Shown piece by piece: positions 38,019 to 46,387 of a stretch of 64,000 bases of DNA. The notes beneath the pieces were generated by a model. The model saw nothing but the letters and a program-made list of their open reading frames with translations. It was not told where the DNA came from and did not search any database. Source of the DNA: Planotetraspora phitsanulokensis (GTDB lineage Bacteria; Actinomycetota; Actinomycetes; Streptosporangiales; Streptosporangiaceae); NCBI RefSeq assembly GCF_016863295.1, contig NZ_BOOP01000006.1, positions 62,001 through 126,000 on the forward strand, given 5' to 3'. Every line of letters starts with the position of its first letter. The first letter of the stretch is position 1. The translations under genes and the position numbers were made by a program.

Positions 38019-38624
38019 GTGCTGGACGTCCTGAGAGACCAGAGCCTCGTCATCGTCTGCGCGGCCCTGTTCGGTTTCCTCGTCCTCGACGGCATGCTGC
38101 TGGTCGGCCTCGTGATCCCGGCCGACGCGCTCATCCTCCTGGCGGGGACCACCGCGAGCGGGCCGGCCGAGGTCGCGGCGGTGATCGCCTCCGGCGCGGC
38201 CGGATGCGTGACGGGCGCGTCCGTCGGCCACCTCCTCGGCCGCCGGTACGGCTCCCGCCTGCTGCACGGCCGATGGGGATCCCGAGTCGGCGATGCGCGC
38301 TGGCGCCAGGCAGGCGACGTCCTGCGGCGCAGCGGCCCGGCGCTCGCGTTGTCGTACTTCCTGCCGGTCATGGACTCGCTCATCCCGGTTCTGGCCGGGA
38401 CGCTCGGCATGCCGTACCGGCGGTTCATCGGCTGGGTCCTGGCCGGCGGGACCGCGTGGGTGGCGGCGGACGCGATCGCGGGCTACGCCGCCGCGGAGAT
38501 CGGCGACGGCTGGCTGCTCGCCGCCGTCGCGGTCGTGCTGATCGGCGCGTCCGTCGCCGTCCGGGCGGGCCGCTCACGCCGTACGGAGAAGGCCGAGGAG
38601 GCCGAGACCGTCGACGCCGCATGA
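38019..38624 (+). CDS. DedA-family membrane protein
   Basis: 201 residues from GTG 38019. It has the DedA/SNARE-associated pattern: VIPADALILLAGTTASGPAEVAAVIASGAAGCVTGASVGHLLGRRYG, then FLPVMDSLIPVLAGTLGMPYRRFIGWVLAGGTAWV with the conserved basic and acidic residues of the reentrant region. The family scrambles or transports polyprenyl- and phospholipids. The start is uncertain: an ATG at 37983 adds 12 residues and a TTG at 37941 adds 26. I prefer 38019, as CGAGG lies at suitable distance and the family starts here. Confidence 0.82.
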   Translation: MLDVLRDQSLVIVCAALFGFLVLDGMLLVGLVIPADALILLAGTTASGPAEVAAVIASGAAGCVTGASVGHLLGRRYGSRLLHGRWGSRVGDARWRQAGDVLRRSGPALALSYFLPVMDSLIPVLAGTLGMPYRRFIGWVLAGGTAWVAADAIAGYAAAEIGDGWLLAAVAVVLIGASVAVRAGRSRRTEKAEEAETVDAA

Positions 38625-38732
38625 TCACGCACGACGTCCTCCCTGGTCAGCGGGCGTTTCGCCGAAGGTATGCATGATCACGGTTCGCGTTCCCCTGATG
38701 AGAGCGCCTGTCGCCGTACCTGTGCATGATCA
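38619..38732. repeat. three copies of GCATGATCAC at ~52-bp spacing
   Basis: At 38619-38628 (overlapping the DedA stop), 38672-38681 and 38723-38732. Each holds the palindrome TGATCA; copies two and three share TGCATGATCAC and a trailing GC-rich part. They fill the gap between DedA and the GNAT gene and may be operators, a small repeat family, or a scar. No gene is present in the gap. Confidence 0.45.
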
Positions 38733-38750
38733 CAGCCAAGAGAGGGGGTG

Positions 38751-39206
38751 TCATTGGAGTCTCAGGGTGATGAAGGGGTCCTCGTCCTCTGGCGGGAGGT
38801 AGCGGGACACCTCCACGAACTCGTGGGACAGCGCGAACCGCAGCCCGTCCGCGTTCGACGCGAGGACCACGGTCTCGATCGCCCGGGCGCCCGACGTCCG
38901 GGCGTGCGCCACCTCCGTCTCGTAGAGCTCCTCGCCGTACCCGTTTCGCCGATGGGCCGGAAGCACACGGACGATCACCGTGGCGGTCGCCGCGTCGCCC
39001 GCGGGAGGACGCACGGTCGTGCAACCGACGAGCACGTCGCCGAGATACGCCACCTCCAGATGGTTGCGCCCGACGCGCTCTCGCACCTCGTCGGTCGACA
39101 GAGGATCGGAGGGGATGATCACGTTGTGGACGTGACGCCAGTCTTCGAGCGTGGCGTCGCCGACGGGTTCGATGCGGAGCCGGGGCATCGCGACACTCAA
39201 CGGCAT
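38751..39206 (-). CDS. GNAT-family acetyltransferase
   Basis: 151 residues from ATG 39206 (an inner ATG at 39188 gives MPRLRIEPVG, equally plausible). The acetyl-CoA motif reads VRVLPAHRRNGYGEELYE, and the fold continues with SGARAIETVVLASNADGLRFALSHEFVEVSRY. The substrate is unknown. It is divergent from the MoxR operon across a 96-bp AT-rich gap. Confidence 0.8.
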   Translation of the reverse strand: MPLSVAMPRLRIEPVGDATLEDWRHVHNVIIPSDPLSTDEVRERVGRNHLEVAYLGDVLVGCTTVRPPAGDAATATVIVRVLPAHRRNGYGEELYETEVAHARTSGARAIETVVLASNADGLRFALSHEFVEVSRYLPPEDEDPFITLRLQ

Positions 39207-39302
39207 CGGCCAGACGAGCGTCAATTGGTTAATCACCCCAACATCCTGCAAAGCACACAATTCGGATGATCGTCCGCCGCCTGCTTCCGTACACTCCGGC
39301 GC

Positions 39303-40454
39303 GTGAAAACTGATTCCGAGCCGAGCATCGATCTCACTCAGGACGCCGCCGCGGTCCGCGACGCGGTGGCCGCCGCACGCGCCGGACTGGTCCAGCGAGA
39401 GCTGATCGCCGAGGTGGTCGCGCTGTGCGCGGTGGCGGGCGAACACCTGCTCGTGATCGGCGCGCCCGGCACGGCCAAGTCGGAGGCCGTCCGCCGCGTC
39501 GCGGGAAGCCTCGGCGGCAGATACTTCGAATACCTGCTCGGGCGTTTCACCGAGCCCAACGAGGTGTTCGGACCCGTGGACCTGCGCCGCCTGCGCGACG
39601 GCGTGGTGGAGATCGAGACGGCCGGCATGTTGCCCGAGGCGGACGTCGCCTTCCTCGACGAGGTCTTCCTCGGCTCGACCGCCATCCTCAACACGTTGCT
39701 GGGCATCCTCAACGAACGGGTCTTCCGGCGCGGCCACACCGCCGTCTCCACACCCCTCAGAGTCTGCGTCGGCGCGGCGAACACCCTGCCCGACGATCCC
39801 TCTCTGGCGGCGTTCGCCGACAGGTTCCTCGCCAGGATCTTCGTCGAACCGGTCCCCGACGCGCGGCTCGAGGAACTCCTGGAGGCGGGCTGGCGGCTGC
39901 CCGACACGGTGGAGCACGATCACGCCGGGCTGATGGAGGCCGTGGACCGCCTCGCCACCGCCGCGCGGGGATGCGACATGTCGCAGGTCCAGCCGCTCAT
40001 CGGCACCGCCATCCGGCGCCTGCGCGCCGCGGGCATCCACATCACCGACCGGCGGGCGGTCCGCGTCCAGCGACTGGTCGCGGCGGCGGCGATCCTGGAC
40101 GGACGGTCCACCGCCTCCATGGCCGATCTCTGGGTGCTGCCCCTGATCGTCCCGACCGCGGACACACAGGCCGCCGCCAGGGAGACACTCGCCGACCTGA
40201 TGGACAAGTCAGACAACCGCAACCTGACACATGCCGCCGAGGAGTTCTCCCGCGGCGCACAGGCACGTGCCACCCGGCTCGCCGAGACCGGCCGCACCCT
40301 GCTCACCGAACTCGATGCGGCACAACCCGATCGCGACCAGCGTCTGCGCGTGGAGGCGACACTGCGCGAGATCGACGCCTGGTTCGCGACCGACGACCTC
40401 GCCGAACCGCTCAGGTCGGTCCGGGCGCGGCTGGTCGCCGTGGTGAGCCCGTGA
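39303..40454 (+). CDS. MoxR-family AAA+ ATPase of a bpX ternary system
   Basis: 383 residues. Walker A GAPGTAKSE (53-61), Walker B VAFLDE (115-120) followed by the MoxR insert FLGSTAILNTLLGILNERVF, sensor 1 GAAN (157-160), and the arginine finger in DRFLAR. The C-terminal third is helical. MoxR ATPases work as chaperones with von Willebrand A proteins. GTG start. The next three genes each overlap by 4 bp and look like the partner proteins of the MoxR-vWA-beta-propeller ternary conflict systems described by comparative genomics. Its cellular target is unknown. Confidence 0.88.
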   Translation: MKTDSEPSIDLTQDAAAVRDAVAAARAGLVQRELIAEVVALCAVAGEHLLVIGAPGTAKSEAVRRVAGSLGGRYFEYLLGRFTEPNEVFGPVDLRRLRDGVVEIETAGMLPEADVAFLDEVFLGSTAILNTLLGILNERVFRRGHTAVSTPLRVCVGAANTLPDDPSLAAFADRFLARIFVEPVPDARLEELLEAGWRLPDTVEHDHAGLMEAVDRLATAARGCDMSQVQPLIGTAIRRLRAAGIHITDRRAVRVQRLVAAAAILDGRSTASMADLWVLPLIVPTADTQAAARETLADLMDKSDNRNLTHAAEEFSRGAQARATRLAETGRTLLTELDAAQPDRDQRLRVEATLREIDAWFATDDLAEPLRSVRARLVAVVSP

Positions 40455-40849
40455 CCCCGGGATTCGGCCTGGAATGGGTGCCACGCGAGCCGCCCCTGCC
40501 CGCCGTGGCGGTGGCCGGTTCGGGTCCGGTCGCGGCCGCCCTCGCGGCGTCCGCCCGTTCCCGGGTCCTCGAAGGCGCGCAGTTGCGCGTCGCCGCGGCC
40601 GATGACTGGATCCTCGTCCTGGGCGGCGAGGAGGACCTGCCCTGGGCCGACGGCGCCCACTACCTGGGCCTCGACGCCGGACTGCTCGTCCCGACGACAC
40701 GGACGCCCGTGCCACGGGCCGAACTGTGGCGCGACCACCTCGTGGCCGGTCACCCGGCCGGCAGGATCGCCGCGCTCATGCCGAGCCACGCCCTGGTCAC
40801 GGACATGCCGCTGCGACCCGTCGACCCCGCCTCGCTGGAGGACGGATGA
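40451..40849 (+). CDS. bpX-type small partner protein (possible bpX5)
   Basis: 132 residues from GTG 40451, inside the MoxR stop. The middle reads DDWILVLGGEEDLPWADGAHYLGLDAGLLVPTTRTPVPRAEL, which I associate with a small partner domain of MoxR-vWA-beta-propeller systems. No catalytic motif, signal peptide or membrane helix. The naming as bpX5 is from memory of the family pattern and is uncertain; the operon position is secure. Confidence 0.65.
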   Translation: MTPGFGLEWVPREPPLPAVAVAGSGPVAAALAASARSRVLEGAQLRVAAADDWILVLGGEEDLPWADGAHYLGLDAGLLVPTTRTPVPRAELWRDHLVAGHPAGRIAALMPSHALVTDMPLRPVDPASLEDG

Positions 40850-42537
40850 GACTCCCCACCGGGCTGAGTCCGTGGACGGAGTCGTTGTCCCACCTCACCC
40901 CCGACCTCGCCCTGGCACTCGGGCCGCTGGTCCGAGGCGTCGACCGGCTCGTCTCCAGCCAGGATCGGGCCCGCCCGGGACCGGGCGGCCTCGACGGATT
41001 CGAAGGGGTGACCACGCACGGACACCCGGAGCTCATGCTCGTGTCCGAATGGCTTCTCGCCGACGAGGCACCCGACGAGTTCCTGCGCCGCGCCGCCCAC
41101 CGAGAGCTCCTCCACCTGGCCCCCGCCGTCCGCACCCCGGCGGCCAGAGGACGGGTGGCCGTGCTCGCCGACACCGGCCCCGGCCAGGCGGGAGCCGGAC
41201 GCCTGGTCCAGCTCGCCTGCATGATCGTCCTACATCGCCGCGCCGCGACTCTGGGGACAACGCTCGCGGTCGGAATCCTCGGCCGCGAACCCGGCGACTG
41301 GCACACCGGCGACCTCCCCGAACTGCTCAAGACCTGGCTCGACGGCCGTGGTGACGCGGAGCCCGACTCCGGCGACGTCGCCGCCTGGACCCATGACGTC
41401 GCCGACGGCGACGACGTTTGGATCCTCACCGGCCCACGCCTGTCCTCGAAACTTCATGGACGGCGCCGCGTGGTCAGCAGCCGCGAATCGGCATGGGGAG
41501 AACACGGGGCCACCCACGTGCGCGTCACATGCGACGGCGACGGCGCCGAACTCGCCCTGCCGCCCGGCCCGATCGCGGTGCGGGCGCTGAGAGGCGCCGA
41601 GTTCAGGCGAGAGCCGGCCGCCGCGGGAAACCCTGAGGTCCCCGGCGCACTCCGGTTCCCCATCTTCCCGAGCTCGGCACGGCGGATCCTGGCACGCGGC
41701 ACGACCTCGGCCGAACTCGTCTCCATCCACGTGCCCCGCACCCCCGGGCGAGGCCCCGTCCGGCGACGCCTGCACCGTCTCGAAGGTCCGGTCCTCGCCG
41801 CCTCCATCCTCGGCAAACGCATCGTCGCCCTCATCGAGAGCGACCACCGGCTGCGCGTCCAGACGATCGGGCAACCGCTGGGCAGGGTCGCGTCCATGTC
41901 CGTCCCCGTCGAAGCCGCCGGCCTCGACATGGCCGGCGTGCACCAGATCTGCGCCGAAGGACTCGTCCCCCTCCACTACCAGTCCGGCGACGTGATCTTC
42001 CCTCTCCGCGACCGCCGCTGGTGGAGACTCACCCGGGACCGCGGAGCCCTCCAGACGGATCTCGTCGCCGTCGGACCGGCGACGGGCGACCAGTTCGACC
42101 AGCCACACCATGTCACCCACGGACCGGACGGCAAACACGTGTCCATCCCACGGATCTCCGGGCCGATCGAGCCCCAGGACGACACCGTCATCCTGGGCGG
42201 CGGCGGATACGCCCGATCGGGCGACGCCGTCACCTGGCAGGTCGTCCACCCGCGGAATCCGCGGACGATCATCACGATCCAACCTCGATCCCACGTCCTC
42301 GGACTCGTCTTCGACGGACAGGAGCCGGTTCTGGTGACCTCCGGGCCAGGTGGAGTCCTCCTCCGGCTGGTACGCCGGTCGGGCACGGTGACGCTCACCG
42401 ACTGGTCCGGGCTGCCGGCCCCGCCGGTGGTCCACCCGACCCTGCCGTTGATCGCCGCACTCGACGACACAGGACGGCTCAAGGCGGGCGACCTCGTCAC
42501 CGGGCAGATCCTCCTTCACACAGCGGCGGACGCATGA
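40846..42537 (+). CDS. vWA-like and beta-propeller partner of MoxR
   Basis: 563 residues from ATG 40846, overlapping the previous stop. The N-terminal part (~60-230) looks like a von Willebrand A fold: RVAVLADTGPGQAGAGRLVQL stands where the MIDAS DxSxS motif belongs but lacks both serines, so metal binding is doubtful. From ~260 the protein is all beta with repeated W/D-containing strands (for example DVIFPLRDRRWWRL, HVLGLVFDGQEPVLVTSGPGGVLLRLV), consistent with a beta-propeller. It may be the substrate-recruiting or scaffolding partner of the MoxR ring. No membrane segment. Confidence 0.65.
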   Translation: MRLPTGLSPWTESLSHLTPDLALALGPLVRGVDRLVSSQDRARPGPGGLDGFEGVTTHGHPELMLVSEWLLADEAPDEFLRRAAHRELLHLAPAVRTPAARGRVAVLADTGPGQAGAGRLVQLACMIVLHRRAATLGTTLAVGILGREPGDWHTGDLPELLKTWLDGRGDAEPDSGDVAAWTHDVADGDDVWILTGPRLSSKLHGRRRVVSSRESAWGEHGATHVRVTCDGDGAELALPPGPIAVRALRGAEFRREPAAAGNPEVPGALRFPIFPSSARRILARGTTSAELVSIHVPRTPGRGPVRRRLHRLEGPVLAASILGKRIVALIESDHRLRVQTIGQPLGRVASMSVPVEAAGLDMAGVHQICAEGLVPLHYQSGDVIFPLRDRRWWRLTRDRGALQTDLVAVGPATGDQFDQPHHVTHGPDGKHVSIPRISGPIEPQDDTVILGGGGYARSGDAVTWQVVHPRNPRTIITIQPRSHVLGLVFDGQEPVLVTSGPGGVLLRLVRRSGTVTLTDWSGLPAPPVVHPTLPLIAALDDTGRLKAGDLVTGQILLHTAADA

Positions 42538-45239
42538 ACCACCAGGACGGATTCCGCGGCAGAATCGGCGCGGCGGGATTCATCATCGACACCCCGGTGC
42601 TCGGCGAACCCGAGGCACGCAGACGCGTCATCGCCCACTGACACGACGGAGCGGAACTGCGCGCACTGCCCGACGCGCGCTGGCTGCTCACGCTCGCGAC
42701 CCCCCTCGACGTGCGCGCGGAGCACGCACCGGGACTCCCGCTCCGCGCCGTCGACGGAGGCCTCGTCACACCCGGCGCGTACGGCGCCCGCCCCGGCGAG
42801 ATCACCTGGCTGCACGCGGGGGCGACACGGACCGGCGAGCTGAACAGGCTGCCCGTCCTCCGCCCCGCCGAATGGCTGGACCCGACCGGACTGACGATCA
42901 CCGAGCTCAAGCCCGTCCAGGCCCCCGAGCCGCAGGTCTCCCCGATCGAGCGGTTCGAGGAGATGAAGGCACCGGACCTGCGCGTGGCCGCCCGGATCGG
43001 ACGGCCGTCCGGCCGGACCGCACGAGTGGCGGCCGAACTGCGCGAGGGCGCGCCCACGACAAGCTCACACGGAGGCCTGGCCGGCTGCCTCACCGTCCTC
43101 GTCGTCCTCATCCCGGCCGCCATGGTGGCGGTGGGGACCGTGCTCCTGTTCGGAGCCCTGTTCCACGACACCGGACTCCACCTGAGTCCGATCGGCGTGG
43201 GGGCGATCGCGGTGATCCTCTACCGGCTCGGCAGACGTCGCGGTCACCCCATGCCCGGCCGGACCGGCACGACCGCCGGGCGGCCGGGCCCGCATCGTGC
43301 CGGAGGCCGCCGCCCGCACCTCCTCCAACGGGCTCTCACCTGGCTGACCGTCCGCACGCCCGCCATGCCGGTCGTGCGACGCCGGCACGAGCGATACCTG
43401 CGTCAGCTCACGCGGGCCTTCCAGCAGAGCCGATGGGACGACGCACTGCGCCAGGCGATCGCGTTGAACGGCACCGGTCACCAAGGCCTGATGACCCTTC
43501 GGCTCCCCTCACGCCGGACCTCGCTCCGCCCGACCCCGATCCCCGGTTCCGGATCGGCATCGGTGCCCTACGGCGAGACGGTCTACCAGCACCTTCACGA
43601 TCTGTACCGCTCCGCCGCCCGGAGCCTCGAGGAGGCAGGCCGTGTCGAGGAGGCCGCGTTCACTCTCGCGGACCTTCTCAATGCGCCCGGCGAAGCCGTC
43701 GACCTCCTCGAACGCCACAAGAAGTGGCGGATGGCCGCCGAACTGGCCGAGGGGCGTGCGCTGTCACCGGACCTCACGGTACGGCTGTGGTGGCGCGCCG
43801 GCGACCGGGAGCGGGCCTCCGACATCGCCCGCTCCCGCGGCGCGTTCGCCTCCGGGATCACCCTTCTGGAGCGAGTCGACGCCGCGGCCGCCCAGGATCT
43901 GCGCAGGGCCTGGGTGCTCGACAGGCAGGCGGCCGGAGACCACGTCGGCGCCGTCGAGGCGGCCTGGCCCGACGAGTCCCTGCGGTCGTCGGTCCTCACC
44001 GACATCCAGGCGGGCCTCGCGCTGGGAGGTCCGGACGCGGCGCACCTGTTCGCCCACCTCGTCGCGCAATGGCCGGGCGACGCCGCACGCGGCACGGCGC
44101 AGGCGCTGCTGGACGGAGACGACGCCGACGGCATGGCGGCCAGATCGAGATTCGGGCAGGCTTTCGCGTCCTTGCGGTGCGCCGACGCGGCAGCCGACCG
44201 TGACCTGGCCACCACCACACTGAGGGCCCTCGTCCGGGACGAGGGCTGGTCGCTGGACGGCCGCACTCTCGACCGCCTGACCCAGTCTCTTTCCGACCGG
44301 GCGGATCCCCTTGCCGCGGCGGACCTTCCCCGGCCCAGGCGACGCCGCCCGTCGCGGGGCGGACCGCCGGTCGTCGCCGCGGCCTCCCCGGGGACGGTCA
44401 CCGTCTTCGACGCCGTCGTCCTGGCCGGCGGCGCGGTCCTGGTCGCCTGCGGGGACGTGGGCACACGCCTGCTCACCGTGGACGGCCGGGTCCGCGCGCG
44501 CTGGGACACCCCGGCACATCAACTGGTCGTCGCCGACCACGGCGGCGCCGCCCTTCTCGTCACCCACCGGGAGACGGTCAGCGACGTGCACCGGCTCGAC
44601 CTCGTCACCCGCAGGGTCCGTCACTGGACCACGCTGAGCGGTCTTCGGCTGGTCCTGCCGTCCTATGACGGCGGACTGCTGACGGCCGTGCAGGAGGACG
44701 GCATCGTCGTGCTCGACACCCTCTCCGAGCGTCCCCGGGTGGTCTGGCGGGAGATGAAGGAGGCCGATGCGATCCTGTCCGTCAGTCGCACACCGTCGGC
44801 CCTCACCGCTCTGGGCCTCATCCCTGTGACGGCACCGGGAGCCGATCGGCTGGTGCAGGCATGGACCTGGGACCTGCCCACGTGGACGCTGCGTGGACGG
44901 CCGACCGTGGAATCCGGCATGGCGCAGGGGACGCGGGTGCTCGCCTCAGGCCGTGTGCTGAGCCCCGATCGCCATGACGACCCGGTGATCTCGGCGGACG
45001 GCGACCTCTACGTGACCACCTCGGGCGGGACCGCCGGCGTGCGCGGTCCATCCGGAGAGGTGAAGTTCCAGGTCGCCTTCCCGGACTCCGATGGGCAGGT
45101 CGTCGGGCTGCGGTCGCACGCCGGAATCGCGACGGTCTTCGACCACCGCGGCCGGGTCGTCGGCCTGGACGCCCGTGGGGCCGTGCAGGCCAACCTTCGG
45201 GTCGTGGTCGGTGTGGGTTCGAGGGTTTCGGTGGGTTGA
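42534..45239 (+). pseudogene. bpX6-like beta-propeller partner, interrupted by in-frame TGA
   Basis: The frame opens at ATG 42534 (ATGA overlap), reads MNHQDGFRGRIGAAGFIIDT to ARRRVIAH, meets TGA at 42639-42641 (codon 36) and then stays open in the same frame for 865 codons. The flanks HAVE coding character on both sides (next: HDGAELRALPDARWLLTL), and a TGG Trp is the simplest ancestral codon. After the stop, the first in-frame start is GTG 42711 with no ribosome site. The long part has a hydrophobic segment (GCLTVLVVLIPAAMVAVGTV), a helical repeat region and a C-terminal propeller (GGAVLVACGDVGTRLLTVDG). So the gene is a nonsense mutant, a readthrough gene (TGA-C is leaky) or a sequencing error. 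Confidence 0.7.
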
Positions 45240-45297
45240 GTGGAATTCGTCCACGCCACGGCCTTTACAAAGTAGATTTCTATTACGATCGGACGTG

Positions 45298-46257
45298 ATG
45301 GACACCCCCGCCGTACCGGACCGGAGCCCGGCTCCCCGCCCCGCGCCCGATCCGTACCACGCCTACCTCGACGCGCTCCCCAGCCTCGAGTCCAAGCGCA
45401 CCATGCGCGGGTGCCTCGACCGGCTCGCCCGGCTCATCACGGGAGACCCGGACGCGACGGGGGCAGGCCAGCCGTGGGAGCGGCTGCGCTACGAGCACAC
45501 CGTCCGCCTGCGCACGGTGATGCGCGAGCAGGGCTGGTCCCCCGCGCACGTCAACAAGCATCTGGTGGCCCTGCGCCGCGTGCTCAAGGAGGCCTGGCGG
45601 CTCGGCCTGATGAGCGGCGAGGACTATCAGCGGGCCGCCGACCTGCCCGCCTTCAAGCACACCCGCCTCCCGGCGGGCGCCCACGTGCCGGCCGAGGTTC
45701 TCGTGGCGTGCCTGGAGGCGTGCGACGACGACCACTCCCCCGCGGGCCGCCGGGACGGCGCCATGCTGGCGGTCCTGTACTCAACCGGATGCCGCCGGGC
45801 CGAGCTCGCCGGTCTGCGGCTCGGCGACTTCGACCGGCCGGCCCGCTCGCTCCGCGTCCGCGGAAAGGGCGACAAGGAACGCCTCGTCTACCTGACGCCC
45901 GAGGCGGTGCAACGCCTCGACCTGTGGCTGTCGGACCGCGGGAGGCAGGCCGGGCCGCTCTTCTGCCCCATCAACAAGGCCGGGCGCCTGCGCCTGTCCC
46001 ACATGACGGGCCAGGCCGTCGCCGACATCGTGACGCGCCGCCTCACCTCGGCCGGAGCCTCGAAGAGGACGCCACACGACTTCCGCCGCACGTTCATCGG
46101 CGAACTGCTCGACGCCGGCGTCGACCTCGCGACCGCCCAGGCACTGGTCGGGCACGCCTCCCCCGCCACGACCGCCCGGTACGACCGGCGCCCGGAACGC
46201 CGCCGCAGGGAGGCCGTCGACCGCCTGCGGATCCCCGGAGCCCCGCAGGCGAGCTGA
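45298..46257 (+). CDS. tyrosine recombinase/integrase
   Basis: 319 residues. An N-terminal SAM-like domain (about 20-110) and a complete catalytic set: R166 in STGCRRAEL, K193 in GKGDKER, H260-x-x-R263 in PHDFRRTF, H286 in LVGHASPATT and Y295. Such enzymes cut and join DNA at specific sites. It starts at ATG 45298 (GTG 45295 also possible) 58 bp after the MoxR operon and is preceded by an AT-rich region (TTTACAAAGTAGATTTCTA). No excisionase or phage genes are nearby, so it is an orphan integrase, perhaps a remnant of the element that brought the MoxR genes, or a regulator of their orientation. Confidence 0.9.
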   Translation: MDTPAVPDRSPAPRPAPDPYHAYLDALPSLESKRTMRGCLDRLARLITGDPDATGAGQPWERLRYEHTVRLRTVMREQGWSPAHVNKHLVALRRVLKEAWRLGLMSGEDYQRAADLPAFKHTRLPAGAHVPAEVLVACLEACDDDHSPAGRRDGAMLAVLYSTGCRRAELAGLRLGDFDRPARSLRVRGKGDKERLVYLTPEAVQRLDLWLSDRGRQAGPLFCPINKAGRLRLSHMTGQAVADIVTRRLTSAGASKRTPHDFRRTFIGELLDAGVDLATAQALVGHASPATTARYDRRPERRRREAVDRLRIPGAPQAS

Positions 46258-46387
46258 CGGCCCGCTCGGGCGGTCTCGCCGTCCGCGTCACCGGACGAGG
46301 ACGGCCGACCCTCACGCTCGAGGAGCAGATCGAGCGGACCCGGGGCCAGCCTGATCTCGTTCGTGGACAGGATCCTCGCGTGAACGA

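What the first reader, a model, noticed from the sequence alone, without database searches (positions are those of the whole stretch)
39303..45239. Compact MoxR-vWA-beta-propeller (bpX) ternary system
Four genes overlap by exactly 4 bp each: MoxR ATPase, a 132-residue protein, a vWA-like/propeller protein and a large propeller protein. This matches the proposed MoxR ternary conflict systems, which have been predicted from genomes but hardly studied. Here it lies next to an integrase. It is the best candidate for an undescribed defence or quality-control system in the window.
Basis: partly seen in the sequence, partly recalled or inferred. Interest (0 to 1): 0.85.

Follow-up and report, generated by a model that had tools for sequence, protein, structure and literature searches.

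The report
Damaged MoxR–bpX5–bpX6 propeller operon
This is a four-gene bacterial protein machine of a kind predicted, but as far as found here not tested, to fight invaders such as viruses; the copy here has a premature stop in its largest gene, while a sister species keeps an intact one.

Summary
Window 39303-45239 (+), in a Planotetraspora genome, holds the MoxR–vWA–beta-propeller ternary system of Kaur et al. 2020 (their subsystem 4): bpMoxR ATPase (E 2.5e-83), bpX5 (E 6.8e-12), a vWA-like/propeller protein, and a bpX6–membrane–TPR-like–propeller protein. The three 4-bp overlaps are real.

Missed: gene 4 is interrupted. An in-frame TGA at 42639-42641 (codon 36) lies inside the bpX6 domain. 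Planotetraspora mira has all four genes open.

The integrase is no evidence of mobility: three congeners without the operon have it beside the same right flank. Flank trees, plus a gene-4 remnant at one empty site, point to loss from an ancestral carrier.

The same gene order is seen in all 11 relatives found by one scan of named genomes (Actinomycetota, Myxococcota, Proteobacteria, Armatimonadota). It is rare: bpX6 rang in 1 of 396 sampled genomes of the phylum, this one.

Most likely mechanism: the MoxR ring, through the vWA-like adaptor, remodels or arms the large scaffold protein, which is membrane-anchored in some members. A conflict role is inferred, not shown. Known kind; another actinobacterial member, probably non-functional in this genome.

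The parts
39303..40454 (+). gene 1: bpMoxR AAA+ ATPase, 383 aa (P-loop GAPGTAKS, Walker B FLDEVF, FADRFL)
   Evidence: Pfam PF20030 E 2.5e-83; motifs
40451..40849 (+). gene 2: bpX5, 132 aa
   Evidence: Pfam PF19921 E 6.8e-12, 45.7 bits over cut-off 27; 4-bp overlap with gene 1
40846..42537 (+). gene 3: vWA-like N-terminal part plus C-terminal beta-propeller, 563 aa
   Evidence: no Pfam match; model pLDDT 80.9 with propeller matches, best E 6e-7; aligns with the bpX0/bpX1 protein of Hymenobacter, prob 74.9, E 2.6e-5
42534..45239 (+). gene 4, interrupted: bpX6, hydrophobic segment, TPR-like solenoid, beta-propeller
   Evidence: bpX6 with 1 TGA inside, 41.2 bits; P. mira homologue bpX6 E 4.6e-13, model, propeller matches; hydropathy
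42639..42641 (+). in-frame TGA, codon 36 of gene 4, inside the bpX6 domain
   Evidence: relatives open there
42711..45239 (+). longest open remainder of gene 4 with a start codon, 842 aa
   Evidence: no evidence that it is translated
45186..45239 (+). 3' tail of gene 4, also present at the operon-free sites of G022 and (shorter) G125

Best explanation
The locus is a bpX5/bpX6-type MoxR–vWA–beta-propeller ternary system, encoded as one translationally coupled operon. Shown by sequence: family membership of MoxR, bpX5 and bpX6; fixed gene order; recurring 4-bp overlaps; propellers in genes 3 and 4; a helical solenoid in gene 4 and a hydrophobic segment in some members; loss or decay in close relatives; a premature stop in gene 4 here. 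Inferred: the MoxR hexamer, docked through the vWA-like protein, uses ATP to remodel or arm the gene-4 scaffold (bpX6 end as sensor or effector, optional membrane anchor, solenoid and propeller as docking surfaces), with bpX5 as a small assembly or regulatory subunit; on a trigger, probably an invading element, the scaffold is switched and acts on the cell. Here the stop probably disables the machine.
For: bpMoxR and bpX5 over cut-off; bpX6; same order in 11 of 11 loci and in two plasmid records; overlaps; models and fold matches; gene 3 and gene 4 align with the Hymenobacter system's second and third large proteins; Kaur et al. passages describe this architecture and propose a conflict role; dN/dS 0.17-0.40 between window and P. 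mira, so the proteins have been under constraint; patchy presence and loss.
Against: No functional test. Gene 3 is not recognised as vWA by Pfam or by profile comparison with vWA domains of the same genome. The membrane segment is absent from 5 of 11 gene-4 rows and, in Sorangium, the peak lies elsewhere. None of the PADLOC models fits beyond a weak mad8 match (E 8.8e-4). Defence genes near relatives are not shown to be enriched. The stop could be a sequencing error; no reads were available.
Confidence: 0.55

Rival explanations
1. A dedicated MoxR/vWA chaperone, like RavA–ViaA or NorQ–NorD, that matures or quality-controls a membrane or other complex; no conflict role.
For: MoxR is nearest, among solved structures, to RavA (E 4.2e-36) and matches the RavA model at 137 bits; gene 4 carries a membrane segment in several members.
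Against: RavA equivalog cut-off is 681 bits; rare and patchy presence, with loss in sister species, is unusual for a maturation factor of a core complex; no constant client gene was seen beyond the four genes, although flanks were only sampled.
Confidence: 0.3
2. A mobile island carried by the neighbouring tyrosine recombinase.
For: Adjacency in the window and in P. mira.
Against: The recombinase lies beside the same right flank in G125, G022 and G077, which lack the operon; it was found in 1 of 14 loci searched, P. mira; the stretch with operon, GNAT and recombinase is 89.3% identical between window and P. mira and two flank stretches are 90.8% and 91.7%.
Confidence: 0.05
3. The stop is an assembly or sequencing error and the system is intact in this genome.
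For: One substitution in a draft of 95 contigs; the rest of gene 4 is open and its dN/dS resembles that of gene 3.
Against: Gene 4 has more window-specific than P. mira-specific amino-acid changes (38 against 20; gene 3: 21 against 17), a weak sign of relaxed constraint; other copies in the family are lost or truncated.
Confidence: 0.12

Closest known systems
MoxR–vWA beta-propeller ternary systems, subsystem 4 of Kaur et al. 2020 (eLife 9:e52696, PMC7159879; passages seen)
   Same: bpMoxR with the GXXXTAKS P-loop, adaptor with C-terminal propeller, third protein with variable N-terminus, membrane segment, TPR-like part and propeller
   Different: host is an actinomycete, whereas the paper says mostly only Bacteroidetes, Planctomycetes, Verrucomicrobia and Proteobacteria; gene 3 lacks recognisable bpX0/bpX1; gene 4 is interrupted here
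Bacteroidota form, Hymenobacter yonginensis plasmid (L016)
   Same: bpMoxR; gene 3 and gene 4 align with its second and third large proteins
   Different: bpX4, bpX2, bpX0/bpX1 and bpX3 in place of bpX5 and bpX6; bpX5 does not align with bpX2
Pseudomonas syringae clade 2b-a region RGP_32 (PMC9677677, one passage seen)
   Same: table rows ravA, bpX5, '6ND4', bpX6 in that order
   Different: sequences not fetched or compared; no function tested in the passage seen
RavA–ViaA
   Same: MoxR ATPase with a vWA partner (partner from the literature listings)
   Different: 137 bits against the RavA cut-off of 681; bpX and propeller partners here

Membership tests
MoxR–vWA beta-propeller ternary system | MoxR of the bpMoxR kind, often with P-loop GXXXTAKS | tested here: met
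   PF20030 E 2.5e-83; GAPGTAKS (TAKS in 10 of 13 rows, TGKS in Cellulomonas and both Methylobacterium)
MoxR–vWA beta-propeller ternary system | adaptor with C-terminal beta-propeller | tested here: met
   model and Foldseek, best E 6e-7
MoxR–vWA beta-propeller ternary system | vWA domain in the adaptor | tested here: inconclusive
   invariant D109-x-G111 at a strand end, homology to the Hymenobacter protein, but no significant vWA match; the paper says some members lack one or both aspartates
MoxR–vWA beta-propeller ternary system | third protein: variable N-terminal domain, membrane segment, TPR and propeller | tested here: met
   P. mira gene 4: bpX6, model, propeller, hydrophobic segment; window copy has all parts but is interrupted
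MoxR–vWA beta-propeller ternary system | role in biological conflict | not testable with these tools
   prediction in the paper; needs phage or plasmid challenge
RavA–ViaA | RavA equivalog score | tested here: not met
   137.2 bits, cut-off 681
Catalogued anti-phage systems (PADLOC 2.0.0) | a model that fits the operon's proteins | tested here: not met
   only mad8, E 8.8e-4, on MoxR; none on bpX5, gene 3 or the 865-aa part of gene 4 (the 35-aa piece before the stop was not given)

The most novel reading that the evidence does not exclude
Actinobacteria carry their own lineage of bpX5/bpX6 systems whose cost drives repeated loss: an ATP-loaded scaffold, membrane-anchored in some lineages and soluble in others, that kills or quarantines the cell on infection, so that idle copies are quickly inactivated at gene 4 or at MoxR.
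Probability: 0.2. Interest if true: 0.65.

Novelty: new member of a known kind. Interest (0 to 1): 0.42.

Why it matters
The propeller ternary systems are predicted immune machines; the listings of four paper searches (up to 20 rows each shown) held no experimental study of one. Two pairs of sister species, each with one carrier and one non-carrier, and an intact P. mira operon of about 6 kb, make the conflict hypothesis directly testable. The locus also corrects two cues: the neighbouring integrase is not part of the system, and the membrane segment is optional.

Tried and rejected
Mobile island driven by the integrase: rejected. Defence hot spot left of the GNAT gene: rejected; the extra 12.9 kb in G104 and 10.6 kb in G022 are 96% alike over 11.5 kb, partly shared with G077 (83% over 9.6 kb), and absent from window and G125, so they look like ancestral DNA lost there; their genes looked metabolic by eye, no family search was made. 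Viral copies: 45 stretches matched a pattern in viral contigs, none was confirmed; in phage records 22 had partial MoxR matches, none covering 80%. Direct vWA match: not significant. bpX5 related to bpX2: not significant. Solved relatives of genes 3 and 4 by sequence: best 0.037 for gene 3 (coatomer), 0 for gene 4. Defence genes in flanks: 73 flank proteins of 11 loci, called by a GC-position heuristic, were scanned together and 30 of the 73 singly. Located: QatD beside the Methylobacterium bullatum copy; AriA/mad3 matches in Acrocarpospora and the Polyangiaceae MAG, possibly generic ATPases; a pVip match in Cellulomonas (E 5.3e-12), possibly generic; Cas12f-type matches in M. aquaticum, probably a TnpB (recalled). 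QatC and HEC-01A also rang, but I did not find in which protein. No control set was run, so no enrichment is claimed. I did not count the prevalence in other phyla (one search failed).
Full report
WHAT IS THERE. The region encodes, on the + strand, MoxR (39303-40454), a 132-aa protein (40451-40849), a 563-aa protein (40846-42537) and a large coding region (42534-45239). The fourth coding region is not open: codon 36, at 42639-42641, is TGA. The ORF list starts the remainder at GTG 42711, 842 aa. The search of the genome with the Pfam bpX6 profile reports its match there (41.2 bits, over the cut-off) with one TGA inside.

IDENTITY. MoxR matches bpMoxR PF20030 (E 2.5e-83) and the 132-aa protein matches bpX5 PF19921 (E 6.8e-12), both over the curated cut-offs; gene 3 and the two pieces of gene 4 had no informative Pfam match. 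In the intact P. mira homologue, gene 4 begins with bpX6 PF19922 (E 4.6e-13), and 9 of 11 gene-4 rows match bpX6 at E up to 0.1. The model of gene 3 (12-sequence alignment, pLDDT 80.9, pTM 0.52) has an alpha/beta part followed by many strands; by their titles most of the best PDB matches are propeller proteins (best E 6e-7). The model of P. mira gene 4 (11 sequences, pLDDT 76.9, pTM 0.41) shows an alpha+beta N-terminal domain, a poorly predicted stretch with helices at 186-234, a helical solenoid at about 351-600 and strands at 629-891, with propeller matches (best E 5.7e-8). The low pTM means that the arrangement of domains is not predicted.

THE vWA QUESTION. Gene 3 has an invariant D109-x-G111 at the end of a strand, but hhalign against vWA profiles built from the same genome is not significant. 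It does align with the bpX0/bpX1 protein of Hymenobacter over 88 columns (prob 74.9, E 2.6e-5). Kaur et al. [quoted passage not shown] I call it vWA-like.

RELATIVES. One scan of the species-genome collection with the gene-3 alignment (a pattern prefilter, 155 stretches) confirmed 11 loci: Planotetraspora mira, Acrocarpospora phusangensis, Embleya scabrispora, Yinghuangia seranimata, Cellulomonas chitinilytica, a Myxococcota MAG, Sorangium cellulosum, a Capsulimonas MAG, a Polyangiaceae MAG, a Stenotrophomonas and Methylobacterium aquaticum. All 11 show pieces of MoxR, bpX5, gene 3 and gene 4 in this order; the Capsulimonas contig holds only the end of MoxR and the start of gene 4, and Acrocarpospora's MoxR and bpX5 are truncated. 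Plasmid records of Embleya sp. NBC_00888 and M. bullatum hold the same order. In the MoxR tree the four actinobacterial genera used form one group, support 0.987 (Acrocarpospora was left out because its MoxR is truncated; the tree is unrooted). The Bacteroidota locus of Hymenobacter has bpX4, bpMoxR, bpX2, a bpX0/bpX1 protein and a bpX3 protein; its last protein aligns with gene 4 over the solenoid (prob 95.1, E 3.2e-8). A P. syringae table lists ravA, bpX5, 6ND4 and bpX6 in one plastic region (PMC9677677).

RARITY. With the window's MoxR, 13 of 297 family genomes have a match at E 1e-30 or better, but only three are at least 85% identical (the window itself, P. mira, and a 93-residue fragment in Acrocarpospora); the other ten lie at 32-46%, and in the one of them that I fetched (G004, 14 kb) no partner gene was found. 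bpX5 is matched in 4 of 297 genomes of the order, over cut-off in 2, and bpX6 in 1 of 396 genomes of the phylum, the window's own. These are samples: Embleya, Yinghuangia and Cellulomonas carriers exist.

HISTORY AT THE SITE. Five genomes of the genus are at hand: window, G104 (P. mira), G022, G125 and G077. The GNAT gene on the left and the recombinase on the right are adjacent without the operon in G125 and G022; G077 has the recombinase and right flank but other genes to its left. Trees of three flank stretches give (window, G125) and (P. mira, G022), with G077 as outgroup. So each pair has one carrier and one non-carrier. The stretch 38747-46281, operon included, is 89.3% identical between the carriers, two flank stretches 90.8% and 91.7%; synonymous divergence is 0.18-0.23 in the operon and 0.29 in the recombinase. 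This fits an ancestral operon lost twice better than two recent gains, although exchange through the shared flanks is not excluded. The empty site of G022 contains, between flank and gene-4 tail, a stretch that aligns with the interior of gene 4: score 32, against a maximum of 25 in 600 control segments, 24 in 400 shuffles and 23 for its reverse complement. That is direct evidence of deletion in G022; in G125 about 40 unassigned bases lie between the blastn matches. Against simple loss: both empty sites keep nearly the same piece of the gene-4 3' tail, and that C-terminal extension is not seen in the nine rows from other genera, so part of the tail may be older flank fused to the gene.

CONSTRAINT AND DAMAGE. 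NG86 dN/dS between window and P. mira: MoxR 0.168, bpX5 0.352, gene 3 0.381, gene 4 0.396, recombinase 0.099. With Acrocarpospora as outgroup, gene 4 has 38 window-specific against 20 P. mira-specific changes (54 unresolved), gene 3 has 21 against 17 (29 unresolved): a hint of relaxed constraint on the damaged gene, not proof. Acrocarpospora lost most of MoxR and the start of bpX5 by deletion, and the hydrophobic part of gene 4 is missing. Of the three Streptosporangiaceae copies examined, only P. mira has four open genes.

MEMBRANE SEGMENT. A strong hydropathy peak in the variable middle of gene 4 is seen in 5 of 11 rows (window, P. mira, Embleya, Yinghuangia, Methylobacterium), not in Acrocarpospora, Cellulomonas, the Myxococcota MAG, the Polyangiaceae MAG or Stenotrophomonas; in Sorangium the only peak lies near residue 88. 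Among full 60-residue blocks this region (181-240) is the most gapped (0.39) and shares the lowest identity (0.21) with 781-840. This refines the statement in Kaur et al. that the variable region includes a membrane-spanning segment.

MECHANISM. Kaur et al. describe, for MoxR/vWA pairs, capture of a peptide by the vWA domain and ATP-driven remodelling through the MoxR ring, and suggest that in this subsystem the third protein pairs with the vWA protein through the propellers and acts near the membrane. The fixed order and overlaps here argue for coupled translation and assembly. I hold this mechanism as most likely; the conflict role is inferred from patchiness, loss and the literature. The rival, a dedicated assembly chaperone, is not excluded.

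LITERATURE. Passages seen: PMC7159879, PMC10907252, PMC9677677. Seen only in search listings with the start of the abstract: PMC9489729, PMC3893208, PMC9976466, PMC13036017. Four searches listed no experimental work on a propeller ternary system; two searches showed 20 of 184 and 20 of 423 papers, and subscription journals and preprints are mostly not held.

Noticed in passing
window 38615-38745: Dispersed repeat of about 115 bases built on TGCATGATCAC; 39 matches in the window's genome, the stretch itself included, and many in congeners.
   Followed up: partly
window 38748/38749; G104:C27, G022:C31, G077:C62: About 10-13 kb present here in G104 and G022, partly in G077, is missing from the window and G125.
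   Followed up: partly
L047/L018 (Acrocarpospora phusangensis): Decayed copy of the system: MoxR stops being homologous after about residue 99 and runs into the second half of bpX5; gene 4 lacks the hydrophobic segment.
   Followed up: partly
L052:8815-12378 (Sorangium cellulosum So ce26): Gene 4 has a long insertion between solenoid and propeller that looks like a PP2C-type phosphatase domain; one search lists one of 11 rows with PP2C_2 (E 0.0011) without naming it, and I infer from the alignment that it is this one.
   Followed up: no
L015:628-1383 (Methylobacterium bullatum plasmid): A QatD match (E 2.4e-96) lies about 8 kb upstream of the M. bullatum copy of the system.
   Followed up: partly
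L056:11952-13178 (Methylobacterium aquaticum): A protein matching Cas12f/Cas12u profiles (E 2.7e-77), probably a transposon TnpB (recalled), directly behind gene 4 on the other strand.
   Followed up: no
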